DNA of 56,272 nt, taken from IMG/VR virus record IMGVR_UViG_3300031576_000051, positions 1 to 56,272 of that record; one strand, written 5' to 3'. The notes below the pieces were generated by a model. The model did no database searches and was not told the origin of the DNA. It saw only the letters and a program-made list of their open reading frames with translations. The DNA is from a virus. Each line of letters begins with the position of its first letter. The stretch's first letter is position 1. The position numbers and the translations under genes were made by a program. Shown here in pieces: positions 1,597 to 49,938 of this stretch.

Positions 1597-1667
1597 ATTG
1601 TCGTCGCCCGAGATGCCTAGAACGCGAGCCCCTAAACGAAGTGCCCCGTAGCTGAGGAGGGAATCAC
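1597..1667. other. Short leader before the 1668 gene
   Basis: A 71-base gap that ends in the ribosome-binding sequence GCTGAGGAGGG. The extended form GCTGAGG(A)GG recurs before other rightward genes that are not coupled to their upstream neighbour (4848, 19633, 22398, 26240), so it appears to be this phage's strong initiation signal. Confidence 0.4.
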
Positions 1668-4770: not shown

Positions 4771-4847
4771 GGGGTGGACGTTTCGTAATCCAACGATTAC
4801 GACGGTTCGGTCCTCGCCCTTAGGCGAGGCGCTGAGGAGGAAGAGAC
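4771..4847 (+). promoter_or_regulatory. Leader with two perfect inverted repeats
   Basis: Between the genes at 4540 and 4848 lie two dyads. TCGTAATC (4783-4790) pairs with GATTACGA (4795-4802) across CAAC. CCTCGCC (4812-4818) pairs with GGCGAGG (4823-4829) across CTTA. The second abuts the ribosome-binding site GCTGAGGAGG. The first begins with TTTCGTAATCCAA, nearly repeated at 21323 in another control region. An operator plus leader hairpin, or a terminator followed by a new start, are both possible. Confidence 0.5.
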
Positions 4848-19553: not shown

Positions 19554-19632
19554 TCGGGCGTTTACATCCGTCATCTCAATCGGTACATCTAGGTCATCGG
19601 CATTCCCGCCGACCTAGCTGAGGGAAGACGAG
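19554..19632 (+). promoter_or_regulatory. Leader region with 7-bp hairpin
   Basis: A 79-base gap. CTAGGTC (19589-19595) and GACCTAG (19611-19617) form a perfect 7-bp stem that abuts the ribosome-binding site CTGAGGGA of the next gene. TTTACA (19561-19566) lies 17 bases before TACATC, a weak promoter-like pair. A new transcript may start here, with a leader hairpin, but the promoter match is poor. Confidence 0.4.
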
Positions 19633-21091: not shown

Positions 21092-21556
21092 GCAGGCCGA
21101 CCTCCCCCTAGCCCCTCCTCCCTGCTAACCCTCGGAACCCTCATGGGACCTCTGCCCTTCGGCCTGGAGAGAAGCGGGCCTCGACCCCATCTCGACCCCT
21201 GCCCCATGAGGAGATCGTGGCCTACGGATGAACCTTGGAGCTTTCGCTCATTCAGGGGTTTACATGTCCATGGGATCCATGAGCTTTTTCTCTCAGCTCA
21301 CCCATTGCAATGAGGGTTGACCTTTCGTAACCCAAGATCGAAAGGTGGAAGCTCAATCATCCCATGAGGATAGATGCACAAAAATAATTCTCAATCAGGG
21401 GTTACGCGCATGGTCATGACCATATACGGCCAAGCCCATGAGATGAATGAGGAATCAAATGAAAAACAATTCGGCGGGAAATCGCGGCGGAGTCCTCTCC
21501 GCCTATTTATGTGGGGAGTTGATGACGCGGTTAACCGAAGCGGAATAGGAGATACC
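21092..21556. promoter_or_regulatory. 465-base A+T-richer region with repeated CCCATGAG and palindromes
   Basis: The largest gap among the rightward genes; no credible gene is present. The 8-mer CCCATGAG occurs at 21203, 21361 and 21435, inverted at 21140 (CTCATGGG), and with one mismatch at 21276. Dyads: CATTGCAATG (21303-21312), CCTTTCG/CGAAAGG (21321-21345), and a 14-bp palindrome ATGGTCATGACCAT (21410-21423). TTTCGTAACCCAA (21323) resembles the element at 4781. Iterated sites plus low G+C suit an operator array or a replication origin; neither is proven. Confidence 0.6.
21486..21510 (+). terminator. Terminator-like hairpin
   Basis: GGCGGAG (21486-21492) pairs perfectly with CTCCGCC (21497-21503) around the loop TCCT and is followed by TATTTAT. 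The stem is strong, but the T-rich tail is broken by two A residues, so termination would be partial. It lies 47 bases ahead of the 21557 gene and could act as an attenuator. Confidence 0.45.
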
Positions 21557-21838
21557 ATGGACGAGAAGCGGTTCAGCCTGGAAGACCTCGTGCGGTTCGC
21601 GAAGTTCCTCGCGTCGGCGGAGGAGGTCCCTGCGGAGGAGGACTTCGAAGCTCAAACGGGAGAGGAGCTGCAGGCCGGAGAGATCGGCGTCTTCTTCGAC
21701 GGGAACACGATGTGGGCGGTGAAGAAGGCGGACGGGACCTATCGGACGGTCATCGAGCGGTCGGAGCCGAGCGGCTCTCTGGAGTACGTCGCCGCCTGCT
21801 GCTTCGAGTGGGCGAAGGACGAGGGGCGGTTCGAGTAG
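21557..21838 (+). CDS. Protein of unknown function
   Basis: A 93-residue acidic protein; ATG 21557 is preceded by AGGAGA and begins sequence with normal composition, whereas the upstream in-frame extension is A+T-rich and atypical. It starts MDEKRFSLEDLVRFAKFLAS (helical) and contains a beta-like GEIGVFFDGNTMWAVKKADG. It is the first gene downstream of the 465-base control region. Function unknown. Confidence 0.6.
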   Translation: MDEKRFSLEDLVRFAKFLASAEEVPAEEDFEAQTGEELQAGEIGVFFDGNTMWAVKKADGTYRTVIERSEPSGSLEYVAACCFEWAKDEGRFE

Positions 21839-21840
21839 GA

Positions 21841-21908
21841 GGACTGACGGGCCTTACCCGTCCCACGCTAACCGAGGGAGTAGCGACCCTCAAAACGAAA
21901 GGCAGTCC
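21841..21908 (+). ncRNA. Leader element A (two hairpins, riboswitch-like)
   Basis: GACGGG (21846-21851) pairs with CCCGTC (21857-21862), loop CCTTA. GAGGG (21874-21878) pairs with CCCTC (21887-21891), loop AGTAGCGA. GGACT (21841-21845) can pair with AGTCC (21904-21908), enclosing both hairpins and the ribosome-binding site. A close relative lies before the 23655 gene, with the same first stem and a second stem of different sequence. This looks like a cis-acting leader RNA; no known class is matched convincingly. Confidence 0.55.
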
Positions 21909-22304
21909 ATGTCGAAGAAGAACGTGAAGAAGCTCGTCGCCTCGAAATCGTCGAAGCCGTCGCTCTCGGACCTCGTGAGCGGGAAGTCGGAGGCGGTCGC
22001 GAAGGCGGTCGCTGAGAGGCGGGCGACGAACGACAAGGCCCTCGCGAAGGCGGCGGCGCAGGAGAAGGTCGCGGCGAAGAAGGACGGGAAGGCGGCGAAG
22101 GAGACGACCCGCAAGCCCGGCAGCGGCGCGCTGATCCGCGAGATGCTGATGAAGGGGGAGACTCCCGAGCGAATCGTCGCCGCGGTCCTGAAGGCCTTCC
22201 CCGATCGGAACACGACGAAGGGCGATGTCGCCTGGAACAAGTGGGACATGAAGCGGAAGGGCGTGAAGGTCCCCGAGACGCGGAAGGTCGCCGCGAAGGC
22301 CTGA
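21909..22304 (+). CDS. Basic protein with C-terminal PGSG/IRE module (copy 1)
   Basis: A 131-residue protein. The N-terminal 70 residues are Lys/Ala-rich and probably disordered, like a histone tail. The last 60 residues start KPGSGALIREMLMKGETPER and contain GDVAWNKWDMKRKGVKVPE. The same module ends the proteins at 25171 and 26998. Its helix pattern suggests a small helix-turn-helix-like DNA-binding unit, but this is inference. It follows leader element A. Confidence 0.65.
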   Translation: MSKKNVKKLVASKSSKPSLSDLVSGKSEAVAKAVAERRATNDKALAKAAAQEKVAAKKDGKAAKETTRKPGSGALIREMLMKGETPERIVAAVLKAFPDRNTTKGDVAWNKWDMKRKGVKVPETRKVAAKA

Positions 22305-22311
22305 TCGGCTT

Positions 22312-22375
22312 CGGGTCGGAGGGGAGCGTCAGAGGCTCCCCGCCGCGCCCGACCCGCCCGAGCACTCCCGCTCGG
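22312..22375 (+). promoter_or_regulatory. Nested hairpins between genes
   Basis: CGGGTCGG (22312-22319) pairs with CCGACCCG (22349-22356), enclosing a second stem, GGGGAGC (22321-22327) with GCTCCCC (22335-22341). A separate hairpin follows: CCGAGC (22358-22363) with GCTCGG (22370-22375). The ribosome-binding site of the 22398 gene begins eight bases later. No T-run is present. The region is either a Rho-type pause or a structured leader. Confidence 0.5.
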
Positions 22376-22397
22376 AGGGACGCTGAGGAGGTTTCAA

Positions 22398-22532
22398 ATG
22401 GAGCTGCTGACCGTGGTGAACTCGCTGTTGGGCGAAGGGCTCTCCCTCTGGGAGGCGTGCGCGGAGACGGATCGCGCGCTCGGCCTCCCGCGGGGAACGA
22501 CCCGCCGCGTCGTCTCGGGGAGGGCGTCTTGA
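22398..22532 (+). CDS. Very small protein, unknown
   Basis: A 44-residue reading frame, MELLTVVNSLLGEGLSLWEA at its start, preceded by GCTGAGGAGG seven bases upstream. It overlaps the next gene through TTGA. The strong initiation signal and the overlap style shared with neighbours argue that it is translated. The sequence looks like one or two helices; no function is known. Confidence 0.55.
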   Translation: MELLTVVNSLLGEGLSLWEACAETDRALGLPRGTTRRVVSGRAS

Positions 22533-22873
22533 GAGTCTCCATTCGGAAGCTGAATCGCGAGCTGCCGCAGGCCCTCCTCTCCTTCTCCGTCTTCGTGGAC
22601 GAGAGGCCGATGGGCTTCGGCGATCTCTGGGAGGAGCCGAACCTGTACGGAGGCCCGGAGAGGTACGTCGGAGGGAATGACCGCTGGATGGAAGCGGGCG
22701 CGGAGGAGGCGGTCTTCGCCCTGGCGGAGGAGGCGGTCTCCCTCGGAGAGAGGACCGACAGGGAGGTTCAGATCTGCGACTGCTGCGGGGCGGAGGACAA
22801 CGGCGACATCTGCGACGGCGTCTGCCCGAGCTGCGACGGGACCTCGGACGAAGAGGGAGGGGAGGAGTCATGA
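22529..22873 (+). CDS. Small zinc-motif protein, unknown
   Basis: A 114-residue protein from a TTG at 22529 overlapping the previous stop; natural-looking sequence begins RVSIRKLNRELPQALLSFSV. The C-terminus has CDCCGAEDNGDICDGVCPSC, a likely zinc site. It overlaps the next gene by four bases. No family is recognised. Confidence 0.58.
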   Translation: MRVSIRKLNRELPQALLSFSVFVDERPMGFGDLWEEPNLYGGPERYVGGNDRWMEAGAEEAVFALAEEAVSLGERTDREVQICDCCGAEDNGDICDGVCPSCDGTSDEEGGEES

Positions 22874-23586
22874 GCGCCTTCGATCCCGACGTGCTGGAGA
22901 AGATCAAGAAGCTCCTCGCGAGGTCCGCCTCCTCCGAGCCGCATGAGGCGGCGCTAGCGCTCGAGATGGCCCAACGGCTGATGAACGAGCACGGGCTGAC
23001 GACCGAACAGGTCGAGGTCGGGCGGATGAAGGAGGAGAGGCTTAGGTCCAAGGCCTCCGTCTCAAAGCCGAAGGACTGGGAGCTTGACCTGTTCAACGGA
23101 GTCGCCGACGCCTTCGGGCTCGGGCTCCTCTTCTCCCGAGGTCCGACGGACAGGGAGATCCACGAGCGCGGTCTCTCCATGTCCGAGAAGTACGCCCACT
23201 ATCTGTTCATCGGACCGGCCGCGGAGATTCAGCTCGCAGCGTATGCGTGCTCCGTCCTCTCCCGCCAGCTGGCCAAGGCGCGGCTGAAGCGACAGGAGAC
23301 GCTGCCTGACTGGTATTCCCGCCTGGAGAAGGTCGGCGCCCTCGACTCCTACTGTCGCGGGTGGGTGGAGTCGGCCCTGTCGAAGGTCCAGAGGCTCGTA
23401 TTCAGCGAGGCACGGAAGAAGGCCATCGCGCTGTACATCAAGGAGCGCTCGGCGGGCCCGACGAAGATGGCGATCCAGCGCTACGGCTCGGAGGCGGATC
23501 GCGCCGCGGGGCGGGAGGACGGAAGCTCTGCCGAGCTGAACCGACCCGTGGACGGGAGGGGAGGGCCGAAAGCTCTGAACGGGTGA
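22870..23586 (+). CDS. DUF2786/DUF7168-type protein
   Basis: A 238-residue protein. Residues 8-50 (LEKIKKLLARSASSEPHEAA ... LMNEHGLTTEQV) are the DUF2786 signature. The middle region with FIGPAAEIQLAAYACSVLSRQL matches the companion domain common in phage members, and the C-terminus repeats GSEADRAAGREDG. These proteins are widespread in phages and bacteria; their role is unknown. It is followed by leader element B. Confidence 0.8.
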   Translation: MSAFDPDVLEKIKKLLARSASSEPHEAALALEMAQRLMNEHGLTTEQVEVGRMKEERLRSKASVSKPKDWELDLFNGVADAFGLGLLFSRGPTDREIHERGLSMSEKYAHYLFIGPAAEIQLAAYACSVLSRQLAKARLKRQETLPDWYSRLEKVGALDSYCRGWVESALSKVQRLVFSEARKKAIALYIKERSAGPTKMAIQRYGSEADRAAGREDGSSAELNRPVDGRGGPKALNG

Positions 23587-23592
23587 AGGCTT

Positions 23593-23654
23593 GACGGGCC
23601 CAACCCGTCCCAGCCCCGACGAGGAGATAGGCGCCTCAAATCGAAGGAGGAGCG
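23593..23654 (+). ncRNA. Leader element B (related to element A)
   Basis: GACGGG (23593-23598) pairs with CCCGTC (23604-23609), loop CCCAA. GAGG (23621-23624) pairs with CCTC (23634-23637), loop AGATAGGCG. It shares with element A the sequence TGACGGGCC, AACCCGTCCCA (TACCCGTCCCA in A), a GAGG-AG-TAG-CG pattern and CTCAAA before the ribosome-binding site. The outer pairing seen in element A is absent. Two related copies before two unrelated genes suggest a shared regulatory signal. Confidence 0.5.
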
Positions 23655-23834
23655 ATGTCGAAGCCGAAGGAAGGTGGATTCAAATGGAGCATTCGGTTCC
23701 TGAAGAACGACCACGTGGTCGTTGACCTCGAGCTGAAGGAGACGCTCGGATACGAGGACGTTCAAAGGTTCATCGGTGAGCTGAGCGGCATCGCCAAGCG
23801 AATGCAGCAGATCGACGAGGCGACCCGTGGCTAG
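23655..23834 (+). CDS. Small protein, unknown
   Basis: A 59-residue protein following AAGGAGGAG. It reads as a beta hairpin (FKWSIRFLKNDHVVVDLELK) and a helix (VQRFIGELSGIAKRMQQIDE). It lies directly behind leader element B and overlaps the next gene by eight bases. Function unknown. Confidence 0.6.
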   Translation: MSKPKEGGFKWSIRFLKNDHVVVDLELKETLGYEDVQRFIGELSGIAKRMQQIDEATRG

Positions 23835-25066: not shown

Positions 25067-25170
25067 GCCGCGAAGAAAGATGCGATGGACGATGGACTGT
25101 TTGAATGGCGGTGAGCTAGACTGATGATCGATGTAGACGTTCCACCCGTCGTGCTGAGGAAGGCAAGGTC
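25067..25170. other. Intergenic gap
   Basis: A 104-base gap after the glycosylase gene. It contains repeated GATG words and ends in the ribosome-binding site GCTGAGGAAGG. TTGAAT at about 25107 resembles a -35 box, but I find no -10 box at a proper distance. No gene is seen. Confidence 0.3.
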
Positions 25171-26073
25171 ATGAAGAAGAAAGCGTCGAAGGCGAAGCCC
25201 AACCCGAAGATGAAGCGGCAGCTCGTCGCCCAGCTGAGAGCCAAGCAGGCGAAGGAGAAGAAGGGGCCAGGCTTCGAGATGAACGAAGAGGAGCTGAAGC
25301 AGCAGGCCTCGAGGCCCCAACCAGAGGTTGCCTCCCTCCCGTGTCCTGACTGCGACGAGCCCCTCTCGCCGATGAACAGGAGCATCCTGCAGGACGGCAG
25401 GGTCATCCACATCGGCTGCAAGGCGCCGAAGAAGACGACGGAGCGGCCGCGCGCGGAGAAGGAGGCGGAGCCGATCCTCTCCGGCCTGCCGAAGCATAGG
25501 AACGTGAAGCCGCCGAAGCCGGCGCCTCCGTTCAAGTCGGAGTTCGGAGACATCATTCCGATGGGCGACTACGCCGGGAGGACCTGCCTGCAGCTGAGGC
25601 GGGACGCGGCGACGGTCACGTTCATCAACACCGGAGATCAGTTCGGCATGCACCTGAACTACGAACCGAAGGAGAGGTTCGACGCCAGGTTCAAGCCGCT
25701 GGAGAAGTACCCCGTGAAGAAGGCGGTCGAGCACTTCGTCAAGTGCGCGGTCGATTACGGGGCAACGCAGGACGTCCTGGATTGGCTGGGACGGGTGGTG
25801 ACTCTCAAGGAGGAGCAGATCATGGCTGCAAAGAAGAAGCTGGCTGGCGCGTCGAACGGCAACGGCAAGGGCGTGAAGAAGTCGTCGGGCCCGAAGAAGC
25901 CGGGGAGCGGCTCGCGCATTCGGGAGCTGATCCTGAAGGCGACGCCGACGGAGAAGATCCTCTCCATCATCCGCAAGGAGTTCCCCGGCTCGAAGGCGAA
26001 GGCCTCCGACGTGTCGTGGAACCGCGGCAAGCTGAAGAACGACGGGGTGAAGATCCCCGAGCCGAAGGGCTAG
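25171..26073 (+). CDS. Multi-domain protein with C-terminal PGSG/IRE module (copy 2)
   Basis: A 300-residue protein. Residues 1-55 are Lys-rich. Residues about 58-84 have LPCPDCDEPL and HIGC, a probable zinc site. Residues about 125-205 form a region with FGDIIPMGDYAGRTCLQLRR and AVEHFVKCAVDYGATQDVLD, not recognised. A Lys/Gly linker leads to KPGSGSRIRELILKATPTEK ... DVSWNRGKLKNDGVKIPEP, the module shared with the genes at 21909 and 26998. Nucleic-acid binding is plausible but unproven. Confidence 0.65.
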   Translation: MKKKASKAKPNPKMKRQLVAQLRAKQAKEKKGPGFEMNEEELKQQASRPQPEVASLPCPDCDEPLSPMNRSILQDGRVIHIGCKAPKKTTERPRAEKEAEPILSGLPKHRNVKPPKPAPPFKSEFGDIIPMGDYAGRTCLQLRRDAATVTFINTGDQFGMHLNYEPKERFDARFKPLEKYPVKKAVEHFVKCAVDYGATQDVLDWLGRVVTLKEEQIMAAKKKLAGASNGNGKGVKKSSGPKKPGSGSRIRELILKATPTEKILSIIRKEFPGSKAKASDVSWNRGKLKNDGVKIPEPKG

Positions 26074-26090
26074 GACCCGTGGCTCGCGAC

Positions 26091-26216
26091 TCCCGACCCC
26101 TCCGCCGAGGCGGGGGAGGTCGGGATGCGCACGAGGCCGATGACCTGAAGGGACGTTGCCTGCGGACCTCAGCCCGCTTGGCGACCAAGCCCCAAGGTTG
26201 TCGGCCTCGTGCGCAT
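26091..26216 (+). ncRNA. Two abutting stem-loops with a 16-bp perfect stem
   Basis: Hairpin 1: TCCCGACC (26091-26098) pairs with GGTCGGGA (26118-26125), with further C/G pairing inside. Hairpin 2: ATGCGCACGAGGCCGA (26125-26140) pairs perfectly with its complement at 26201-26216, enclosing 60 bases that include GCTTGG/CCAAGC (26176-26190). A 10-bp palindrome TCAGCGCTGA (26217-26226) follows, then the ribosome-binding site of the 26240 gene. A 16-bp perfect stem by chance is very unlikely; function unknown (structured RNA, regulatory leader or recombination site). Confidence 0.6.
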
Positions 26217-26239
26217 TCAGCGCTGAGGGAGATTTGAAC

Positions 26240-27001
26240 ATGACACCGCAAACCTCCGGCCTGGCCGGAGCAGTGAAGAAGTATCTCGAGCTGCAGCTGA
26301 CGAAGGACGTGGCCACCGGCTTCGACTCCGGCGCCCGAGCGGCGCTCGGTGCCTGGAGCCGGCTCGAGGGATCCCGCCCGCCGACGGAGAGCGAGCAGGT
26401 GATGGAGTTCATGGAGAAATTCAACCACATGTTCCTCACCGGCCAGGGCGTCCCCCTTCACCGCCACCCGCCGACGAACCATCCGCGACACCTCACGCTG
26501 CGAAAGCTTCAGGAGCGATTCGTCCAGATGCAGGAGGAGCTGATCGAGGAGTTCTACGACGGCATGCACGAGCAGAGCCTCGAGAAGATGGCCGACGCTC
26601 TGATCGATCTCGTCTACTTCGCGAAGGGGACGGCGAACCTCCTCGGCCTTCCGTGGGAGGAGCTGTGGAACGACGTTCACTCCGCGAACATGCGGAAGGT
26701 CCGCGGAGAGAAGACCCGCGGAGGGATGCTCATCAAGGTGGACTGCGTGAAGCCGCCCGGATGGGTGGGGCCGCGCACGCTCGACATCCTCAAGGCCGCC
26801 GGCTATCGCCCGGGCTTCGATGACAGGTCGTTCTGGGACGACCCCGAGCACTGCCCAGGCGGGCCGCAGACGGCGGAGGACGTGGCGTTCACTTCGGTGG
26901 CAGGAGCGCCGTGCGAGGCGGTGAAGGTGTACGACGGCCGCGAGGGTCCGACGGACAAGGGCGTCGCCGGCTCCGACTCGTCGGGGGAGGGGTCGCGATG
27001 A
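26240..27001 (+). CDS. MazG-like NTP pyrophosphohydrolase
   Basis: A 253-residue protein, ATG at 26240. Residues about 45-190 match the phage phosphoribosyl-ATP pyrophosphohydrolase/MazG-like family: MEKFNHMF, LTLRKLQERFVQMQEELIEE, MADALIDLVYFAKGTANLLG, HSANMRKVRGEKTRGGMLIK and VKPPGWVGP. The E-E-x-x-E and D-x-x-D residues would bind magnesium. Such enzymes hydrolyse dNTPs to dNMP and pyrophosphate; a dCTPase role as in T4 gp56 would fit the neighbouring genes but is inference. The last 60 residues look disordered. Confidence 0.75.
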   Translation: MTPQTSGLAGAVKKYLELQLTKDVATGFDSGARAALGAWSRLEGSRPPTESEQVMEFMEKFNHMFLTGQGVPLHRHPPTNHPRHLTLRKLQERFVQMQEELIEEFYDGMHEQSLEKMADALIDLVYFAKGTANLLGLPWEELWNDVHSANMRKVRGEKTRGGMLIKVDCVKPPGWVGPRTLDILKAAGYRPGFDDRSFWDDPEHCPGGPQTAEDVAFTSVAGAPCEAVKVYDGREGPTDKGVAGSDSSGEGSR

Positions 27002-28362
27002 GCAAGCTCACCGCCCTAGGCGCCGACATCTTCGCCGGCACCTTCACCCACGGAGTCAAGGCCGCGGGCTTCGACGTCCTCGGCCACCTCGAGCACGGCC
27101 CGTATGGCGTGAAGACGGCACAGCTGAACTTCCCCAAGCTCGAGGTCCGCGTCGGCCGCCAGAACTGGAACGAGAAGGACTTCAAGGGCAAGGTCGACTT
27201 CATGTACACGAACCCGCCGTGCGCGGCCTGGAGCACGGCGCGCTCGGGACAGGGCGGAAGCTGGGAGACGCAGGTGCATCGGCTCTCCTGCGTGGATGAC
27301 GTTGTGACGGCGGGCCTCGTCATCCGTCCGAAGGCGTGGTGCTGGGAGTCGGTGACCAACGCCTGGAGGATGGGTCAGAGGTTCGTGCTTCACCAGGCAG
27401 AGCGTTGGAACGACGCAGGCTACCACTGCACCGTGCTCCTCCAGGACAACCAGTTCCTCGGAGCGGCGCAGGAGCGACAGCGCATGTTCCTCATCGCACA
27501 CCTGCACCCGCTCGTCTGGCCGAAGCTGACGCCGACGACGACCGTGGGAGAGGCGTTCAAGCTGCTGCCGAAGAAGCTCCCGCCCGAGCCGGTCACCCAC
27601 AGCGAGATGCAGCCCTACTGGAAGAAGCGCCTGTGGCCGATGAGCGACAAGTACAAGGGCTACTTCCGGCGCACGCACGAGATGGAAGGCCGCGGGCCGA
27701 TGAAGCTCGAGGGCCGCATCCCGTCCGTCCTCGTCCGCAAGCTGGACCTCGAGAAACCGGCGCCGGTGATGCTGGCCTCGAGCATCCGCCTCCACCCGTT
27801 CGAACGTCGCTACGTGAACTGGTTCGAGTGGCTCGTCCTCTGCGGCCTGCCGCTCACCTGGAAGACGAGCTGCGGCGGTGCAGACTCGGCGACGCAGGAG
27901 CTTGCTCGAGCCGTCCTCTCCCCGGTCGGCAGGTGGCTCGGCACGGCGGTGAGGAAGGGGCTCGCGCTTCCGGCCTTGAGGACACGGCCGAGCACGACGG
28001 TCGTGGACCTCCGCAAGCCCGACCATCCGTACACCCAGAAGATGTTCGACTTCGACGGGTTCACCATCGCACCCTTCGACCTCACGCCGCAGAAGCCCGC
28101 GGAGGAGCCGGTCAACAAAGCGAGCGGGTTCGCCTCCGGCAGGGCGTCGGTCGCTGCCAAGGCGGCGCTGGCGAAGAAGGGCGGAGGAGGAGCGCGCAGG
28201 CCAGGCTCGGGAGCCCGCATCCGCGAGCTGATCCTGAAGGCATGGCCGTGGGAGAGGATCGTCAAGACCGTGCACGATGAATTCCCCGGCAGCAAGGCGG
28301 GGAAGGCCGACGTCGCTTACCATAAATACCATATGCGCAAGGAAGGGGTGGCCGTACCATGA
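26998..28362 (+). CDS. C5-cytosine DNA methyltransferase with PGSG/IRE module (copy 3)
   Basis: A 454-residue protein, ATG at 26998 overlapping the previous stop. Motif I is GADIFAGTFTHGVKAAGFDV; motif IV is TNPPCAAWS with catalytic-type Cys75; motif VI is WCWESV (Glu117); motif VIII is QERQRMFLIA (158-167); motif X-like TQELARAVLSPVGRWLG is near residues 300-316. These are the hallmarks of m5C methyltransferases. The C-terminal 55 residues are the RPGSGARIRELILKAWPWER module shared with two other proteins. Target site unknown; no partner endonuclease is seen. Confidence 0.8.
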   Translation: MSKLTALGADIFAGTFTHGVKAAGFDVLGHLEHGPYGVKTAQLNFPKLEVRVGRQNWNEKDFKGKVDFMYTNPPCAAWSTARSGQGGSWETQVHRLSCVDDVVTAGLVIRPKAWCWESVTNAWRMGQRFVLHQAERWNDAGYHCTVLLQDNQFLGAAQERQRMFLIAHLHPLVWPKLTPTTTVGEAFKLLPKKLPPEPVTHSEMQPYWKKRLWPMSDKYKGYFRRTHEMEGRGPMKLEGRIPSVLVRKLDLEKPAPVMLASSIRLHPFERRYVNWFEWLVLCGLPLTWKTSCGGADSATQELARAVLSPVGRWLGTAVRKGLALPALRTRPSTTVVDLRKPDHPYTQKMFDFDGFTIAPFDLTPQKPAEEPVNKASGFASGRASVAAKAALAKKGGGGARRPGSGARIRELILKAWPWERIVKTVHDEFPGSKAGKADVAYHKYHMRKEGVAVP

Positions 28363-49829: not shown

Positions 49830-49938
49830 TGTCTTTTCCTCGTGCTGCTTGTGTTGGTTGAAGGTTGAACTGAAATGGGTTTCGGGTTTCTCGAGAAGAC
49901 GGGCGAGACCGAAACCTCGCCCGTCTTCTCAGCTCACG
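49830..49938. other. Gap between capsid and decoration-like genes
   Basis: A 109-base gap. GAGAAGACGGGCGAG (about 49892) and CTCGCCCGTCTTCTC (about 49916) form a long inverted repeat just past the capsid stop, a good candidate for a transcript-end hairpin. No gene is present. Confidence 0.45.

What the first reader, a model, noticed from the sequence alone, without database searches (positions are those of the whole stretch)
21841..23654. Two related leader RNAs before unrelated genes
Elements at 21841-21908 and 23593-23654 share TGACGGGCC, a GACGGG/CCCGTC stem, then a second stem whose bases differ but still pair (GAGGG/CCCTC versus GAGG/CCTC), a loop with AG-TAG-CG, CTCAAA, and the ribosome-binding site. 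Paired sequence change in stem 2 supports an RNA. The downstream genes (21909 and 23655) are not related, pointing to a common ligand, protein or phage factor that controls both.
Basis: seen in the sequence. Interest (0 to 1): 0.68.

Follow-up and report, generated by a model that had tools for sequence, protein, structure and literature searches.

The report
Two look-alike phage gene leaders
Two neighbouring, unrelated genes of an uncultured bacteriophage carry nearly the same 70-base lead-in with a small hairpin before the ribosome-binding site; the likeness is real, but the claimed proof of a folded regulatory RNA is not, and related phages reuse leaders in the same places as ordinary gene-expression start cassettes.

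Summary
The likeness is real. E1 (21840-21908) and E2 (23587-23654) match over the whole intergenic gap and stop at ATGTCGAAG; local score 24, against at most 16 in 60 shuffled genomes. Hairpin GACGGG/CCCGTC is identical and stable in both. The key claim fails. Stem 2 does not covary: GAGG/CCTC is invariant, and E1's fifth pair is simply unpaired in E2. No pair of either helix changes on both sides. In full context stem 2 forms with probability 0.15 (E1) and 0.01 (E2). The shared three-helix fold is about 9 kcal/mol worse than E2's own optimum. No homologue turned up in IMG/VR, 85,000 prokaryote genomes, GenBank phages, Rfam or about 80 relatives. In relatives, shared leaders before unrelated genes are common: promoter, 5'UTR hairpin with paired changes, GCTGAGGA, ATG. 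One copy often precedes a ~130-aa gene with the same C-terminal domain as the gene after E1. The window keeps leaders of that kind elsewhere (e.g. 19554-19632). E1/E2 lack its promoter and GCTGAGGA. Most likely they are a private, duplicated expression-leader cassette, with hairpin and RBS, occupying those positions. A ligand-sensing RNA has no support.

The parts
21840..21908 (+). Leader E1: whole gap between the stop at 21838 and the ATG at 21909
21846..21862 (+). E1 hairpin 1, GACGGG-CCTTA-CCCGTC; also a perfect DNA palindrome; pair probability about 1
21874..21891 (+). E1 proposed stem 2, GAGGG-AGTAGCGA-CCCTC; probability 0.15 in context
21841..21908 (+). E1 possible closing helix GGACT (21841-21845) / AGTCC (21904-21908); 4 of its pairs can also form in E2, 2 of them with both sides changed; about 7% by chance given the changed columns
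21909..22304 (+). 131-aa gene after E1: helical, Lys/Ala-rich N part and a C-terminal three-helix domain (residues about 68-122) shared with two other window proteins and 94 stretches in 52 records
22870..23586 (+). DUF2786/DUF7168 protein between the two elements; homologues in relatives
23587..23654 (+). Leader E2: whole gap between the stop at 23586 and the ATG at 23655
23593..23609 (+). E2 hairpin 1, GACGGG-CCCAA-CCCGTC; pair probability about 1
23621..23637 (+). E2 proposed stem 2, GAGG-AGATAGGCG-CCTC; probability 0.01 in context; the CCTC (23634-23637) pairs instead with GAGG of the ribosome-binding site (23647-23650)
23655..23834 (+). 59-aa gene after E2, no relatives found
19554..19632 (+). 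For comparison: a leader of the clade-wide kind in the same window, GTTTACA (19560) - N17 - TACATC - hairpin - GCTGAGGG - ATG 19633
25067..25170 (+). For comparison: leader with hairpin GACG-TTCCACC-CGTC and GCTGAGGA before the 300-aa domain-bearing gene 25171

Best explanation
E1 and E2 are two diverged copies of one phage-private expression-leader cassette, a short intergenic unit (stable hairpin, linker, ribosome-binding site, first codons ATGTCGAAG) placed before two early genes so that both are expressed in the same way. They occupy positions that related phages fill with their own repeated leaders: promoter, 5'UTR hairpin with paired changes, GCTGAGGA. The likely working parts are hairpin 1, which may protect the 5' end or set where the message begins or is processed, and the ribosome-binding region; no ligand is sensed. 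Shown: the likeness, the invariant stable hairpin, the boundaries exactly at stop and start, absence of covariation, and the repeated leaders in relatives. Inferred: common origin by copying, positional equivalence to the relatives' cassettes, and the hairpin's role. Not shown: where transcription starts.
For: Similarity spans only the gap and stops at the start codon. Score 24 against at most 16 in shuffles. Hairpin 1 forms with probability about 1 in both. All 20 arm columns are invariant although only 48 of 73 columns are (hypergeometric p about 4e-5, but arms were chosen after the fact). In 17 of 83 relative records two or more genes share a promoter-bearing leader, and in 11 of these 17 one copy precedes a gene with the same C-terminal domain as the gene after E1. 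76 such leaders read TTGAAAATAnnTGTTTACA-N13-18-TANNNT-UTR-SD-start; in a 33-member subset the UTR helix keeps 97.6% of cells paired, with 8 cells changed on both sides and 8 G-U cells at one pair. The window belongs to this group (helicase about 52-60% identical) and has GCTGAGG within 30 nt of 8 gene starts where 0.56 are expected.
Against: E1/E2 lack the group's promoter and GCTGAGGA, and neither a sigma-70 nor a Caulobacter-type promoter is convincing in both. E2 has a perfect TTGACGG -35 (11 matched positions, reached by 2% of random windows) but a poor -10; E1 is no better than 19% of random windows. The least conserved part is where the -10 would lie. So equivalence to the relatives' cassettes rests on position, not on sequence. 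Only two copies exist.
Confidence: 0.5

Rival explanations
1. Hairpin 1 is read as DNA: the perfect palindrome GACGGG-N5-CCCGTC is an operator for a phage or host repressor dimer that co-regulates the two genes; the gene after E1 could encode the regulator.
For: 17-bp perfect palindrome with identical half-sites and identical 5-nt spacing in both copies. It overlaps a TTGACGG/CTGACGG -35-like box; TTGaCgS is the Caulobacter RpoD -35 consensus (PMC8144410). The protein after E1 is basic with a confidently predicted three-helix C-terminal domain; sub-threshold Mrr_N hits to relatives of that domain.
Against: No promoter is convincing in both copies. The structure search of the domain gave no significant DNA-binding match (best E 1.0). 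The palindrome with this context occurs nowhere else in the window. In relatives the corresponding hairpin has variable spacing and G-U pairs, which suits RNA better than a DNA operator.
Confidence: 0.2
2. A true cis-regulatory RNA: hairpin 1 plus alternative pairings around the ribosome-binding site bind a protein or ligand and switch translation of both genes.
For: Hairpin 1 invariant and stable. In E2 CCTC can pair either with GAGG upstream or with the ribosome-binding GAGG. A closing helix beside the start codon keeps 4 pairs, 2 with both sides changed.
Against: The closing helix is expected about 7% of the time by chance, and some helix with two double changes appears in 38% of simulations. 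The shared fold is about 9 kcal/mol worse than E2's optimum. Ribosome-binding-site sequestration is not shared by the two copies. No homologues and no Rfam hit.
Confidence: 0.15
3. Passive duplication: one gene was inserted or duplicated with its upstream gap, and the likeness has no regulatory meaning beyond a ribosome-binding site.
For: Likeness runs into the first codons ATGTCGAAG; only two copies, 1.7 kb apart.
Against: About 31% of columns have diverged, yet long blocks including both hairpin arms stayed identical. The likeness starts just after the upstream stop in both cases.
Confidence: 0.15

Closest known systems
Repeated promoter + 5'UTR leader of the related siphophage group (Stenotrophomonas phage AXL3, Pseudoxanthomonas phage PW916 of Mesyanzhinovviridae, MW202621.1 and IMG/VR relatives), as found here
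   Same: Short leader repeated before unrelated early genes; hairpin upstream of the ribosome-binding site; often before the ~130-aa gene with the same C-terminal domain.
   Different: Relatives have a recognisable TTTACA/TANNNT promoter and GCTGAGGA; E1/E2 have neither, and there is no sequence homology between the leaders.
5'-end stabilising hairpins of bacterial mRNA (e.g. ompA; general knowledge)
   Same: Small stable stem-loop upstream of the ribosome-binding site.
   Different: The transcript 5' end is unknown here, and other 5' structures are possible.
Riboswitch / Rfam cis-regulatory families
   Same: Position in a leader.
   Different: No Rfam match, no covariation, no conserved multi-helix core.
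Phage operator palindromes
   Same: Perfect inverted repeat before a gene with a possible DNA-binding product.
   Different: No binding protein shown; only two sites; promoter not evident in both.

Membership tests
Repeated promoter/5'UTR cassette of the relatives | TTGAAAATAnnTGTTTACA - spacer - TANNNT promoter directly upstream | tested here: not met
   No such motif anywhere in the window at 5 or fewer mismatches, and no GTTTAC near E1/E2; best sigma-70 match in E2 scores 6 of 12
Repeated promoter/5'UTR cassette of the relatives | GCTGAGGA ribosome-binding region | tested here: not met
   Present (as GCTGAGG) at 8 other window starts, absent in E1/E2
Repeated promoter/5'UTR cassette of the relatives | Hairpin upstream of the ribosome-binding site, shared by leaders of unrelated genes | tested here: met
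   Hairpin 1 probability about 1 in both copies; downstream genes unrelated
Structured cis-regulatory RNA (riboswitch-like) | Compensatory changes supporting the helices across homologues | tested here: not met
   0 pairs changed on both sides in stems 1 and 2; no homologues found
Structured cis-regulatory RNA (riboswitch-like) | Match to a known family | tested here: not met
   cmscan gathering: 0 matches; E-value mode: one sub-threshold chance match elsewhere
Structured cis-regulatory RNA (riboswitch-like) | Ligand- or protein-dependent change of structure or expression | not testable with these tools
   Needs probing and reporter assays
DNA operator | Bound by a dimeric regulator at the palindrome | not testable with these tools
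   Palindrome present; no binding data; fold search of the candidate protein inconclusive
Intrinsic terminator | GC-rich stem followed by a run of T | tested here: not met
   No T run after the stem; not reported by the terminator scan

The most novel reading that the evidence does not exclude
E1 and E2 form a two-gene phage regulon in which hairpin 1, as RNA, is bound by a phage protein (for instance the basic three-helix-domain protein made from the gene after E1), giving autogenous and cross control of translation through the competing pairings at the ribosome-binding site.
Probability: 0.08. Interest if true: 0.55.

Novelty: new member of a known kind. Interest (0 to 1): 0.27.

Why it matters
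The pair itself is a modest example of how a phage reuses one expression leader for several genes. The more useful by-product is the background it exposed: related environmental siphophages share a repeated promoter with a 5'UTR hairpin that keeps pairing through sequence change, linked to a widespread uncharacterised three-helix domain. That is a sharper target for experiments, because it has dozens of homologues and its group includes cultured phages (AXL3, PW916). Correcting the covariation claim also avoids a false riboswitch lead.

Tried and rejected
Exact-pattern scans of IMG/VR: one search gave one match, in a stretch that reads as a protein-coding region; one search gave 11 matches without stem 2; one search gave 0; one search gave 9, of which 8 lie within long open frames and the ninth has no start codon in the 45 nt that follow. 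Pattern scan of 85,000 genomes: 15 matches at about the number I estimated for chance, none of them a leader like E1/E2 by covariance model. Two-sequence covariance model R1 over the window unfiltered, the whole records behind L004-L010 and about 80 relatives: only E1 and E2. A weak hit in L021 (24.6 bits) was selected by the search pattern and lacks stem 2. DNA search in GenBank phages: only short matches with E of 0.8 or more. Sigma-70 promoter for E1/E2: rejected for E2. Intrinsic terminator: no T run. RNase III-type processing site: rejected from general knowledge because the stem has only 6 bp. Protein-based relatives of the 59-aa gene after E2: none. The L003 hit to the 131-aa protein was spurious.

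Full report
What was checked. The window is one virus record of 56,272 bases. A home-made gene caller gives a plus-strand early block (about 1.3-30.3 kb) and a minus-strand block from 30.4 kb on. E1 fills the gap 21839-21908 and E2 the gap 23587-23654; each runs from just after a stop codon to the next ATG.

The likeness is real. E1 and E2 align with 48-49 of 72-73 columns identical and one gap. The local score is 24; E1 reaches at most 16 in 60 dinucleotide-shuffled windows, and no other place in the window exceeds 16 for either element. A self-comparison shows the likeness running from just after the upstream stop to ATGTCGAAG and ending there. Searching the window with a two-sequence covariance model without filters finds only these two; the next match has 10 bits.

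The covariation claim is wrong. Counted pair by pair, stem 1 (6 pairs) never varies; stem 2 has 4 invariant pairs, and the fifth pair of E1 is unpaired in E2; no pair has changed on both sides. In context stem 1 forms with probability about 1 in both, while stem 2 forms with 0.15 in E1 and 0.01 in E2. In E2 the CCTC arm prefers the ribosome-binding GAGG. The fold that both would have to share has -16.1 kcal/mol in E2 against an optimum of -25.1. I looked for other helices that might covary. A closing helix beside the start codon keeps four pairs, two of them with both sides changed, but this has about a 7% chance given the changed columns, and some helix with two such changes appears in 38% of simulations. 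This is a hint, not evidence.

No relatives of the element. Four pattern scans of IMG/VR, one of 85,000 prokaryote genomes, covariance searches over the fetched loci and whole relative records, a DNA search of GenBank phages and Rfam gave none. The tools warn that records very near the window may be left out of collection scans, so close sister genomes could exist unseen.

What relatives do at these places. The helicase gene at 17.6 kb leads to about 80 related records and three named phages. In 17 of 83 relative records I found leaders shared by two or more genes that carry a promoter-like core; in 11 of those one copy stands before a gene of about 120-370 aa that ends in the same three-helix domain as the 131-aa protein after E1. 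The best-defined version, 76 distinct leaders, reads TTGAAAATAnnTGTTTACA, a spacer, TANNNT, a 30-75 nt 5'UTR and a ribosome-binding site that is usually GCTGAGGA. In 33 of them a helix CGGTC/GACCG keeps 97.6% of cells paired, with 8 cells changed on both sides and 8 G-U cells at one pair. These 33 were picked partly because the hairpin was visible, so the percentage is inflated, and many are close relatives; the double changes are less affected by that choice.

The window has this leader kind too, but E1/E2 are not it. GCTGAGG lies within 30 nt upstream of 8 gene starts in the window against 0.56 expected. The leader of 19633 has GTTTACA, 17 bases, TACATC, a hairpin and GCTGAGGG; the covariance model of the relatives scores it only weakly (9.1 bits, E 1.6). 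E1 and E2 lack both promoter and GCTGAGG. E2 has a perfect TTGACGG, which is the Caulobacter RpoD -35 consensus (PMC8144410), but neither copy has a good -10. I therefore file them by position and behaviour, not by homology, beside the relatives' cassettes.

The gene after E1. Its C-terminal domain recurs at 25894-26058 and 28195-28359 in the window and at 94 places in 52 records of the searched set. AlphaFold2 gives three confident helices (pLDDT about 95, residues 72-116) after a less certain helical N part. Foldseek against the PDB gives nothing significant (best E 1.0, mostly Fur-like regulators), and Pfam only sub-threshold Mrr_N for relatives. A nucleic-acid-binding role is plausible but not shown.

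Verdict. A real, phage-private pair of leaders with one stable hairpin; best read as a duplicated expression-leader cassette (confidence 0.5). A DNA operator (0.2), a regulatory RNA (0.15) and passive duplication (0.15) remain open. What would decide it is 5'-end mapping and hairpin-mutant reporters.

Noticed in passing
L048-L124 (76 leaders, e.g. upstream of L057:11538, L048:31315 (-), L071:11549): Group-wide repeated cassette in related siphophages: TTGAAAATAnnTGTTTACA promoter, 5'UTR hairpin with paired changes (CGGTC/GACCG to CGAAC/GTTCG), usually GCTGAGGA, ATG. I found no description of it in three paper searches or in the AXL3 paper.
   Followed up: partly
window 22110-22274, 25894-26058, 28195-28359; 94 stretches in 52 records: A widespread uncharacterised C-terminal three-helix domain (phrog_17205 and others, unknown function), three copies in this phage, one fused to the C-terminus of the 454-aa protein encoded at 26998-28362.
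   Followed up: partly
L123:7100-12370 (+): GC-rich relative with 11 genes behind a different repeated promoter-like leader, (GG)GGCTTGC-N17-TACTCTTCTTTCAC, several with their own small UTR hairpins.
   Followed up: partly
window 26074-26239: Very stable long inverted repeat (predicted about -72 kcal/mol for the last 130 nt) in the gap between genes 25171 and 26240, of the form GGATGCGCACGAGGCCGA ... TCGGCCTCGTGCGCATTC.
   Followed up: no
window 1597-1667, 4771-4847, 22305-22397, 25067-25170: Other plus-strand leaders with GCTGAGGA before the start codon, several with a hairpin just upstream.
   Followed up: partly
window 21092-21556: Low-GC, repeat-rich stretch before the operon that holds E1/E2; possible main promoter or origin region.
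   Followed up: no
window 49893-49930: 15-bp perfect hairpin GAGAAGACGGGCGAG/CTCGCCCGTCTTCTC in a gap of the minus-strand block, possible terminator.
   Followed up: no
L004 11504-11556 and 15998-16050: Near-perfect long hairpin GTTGCTCAATGCAAGCCGGCC... present twice in the relative, once decayed inside a promoter leader.
   Followed up: no
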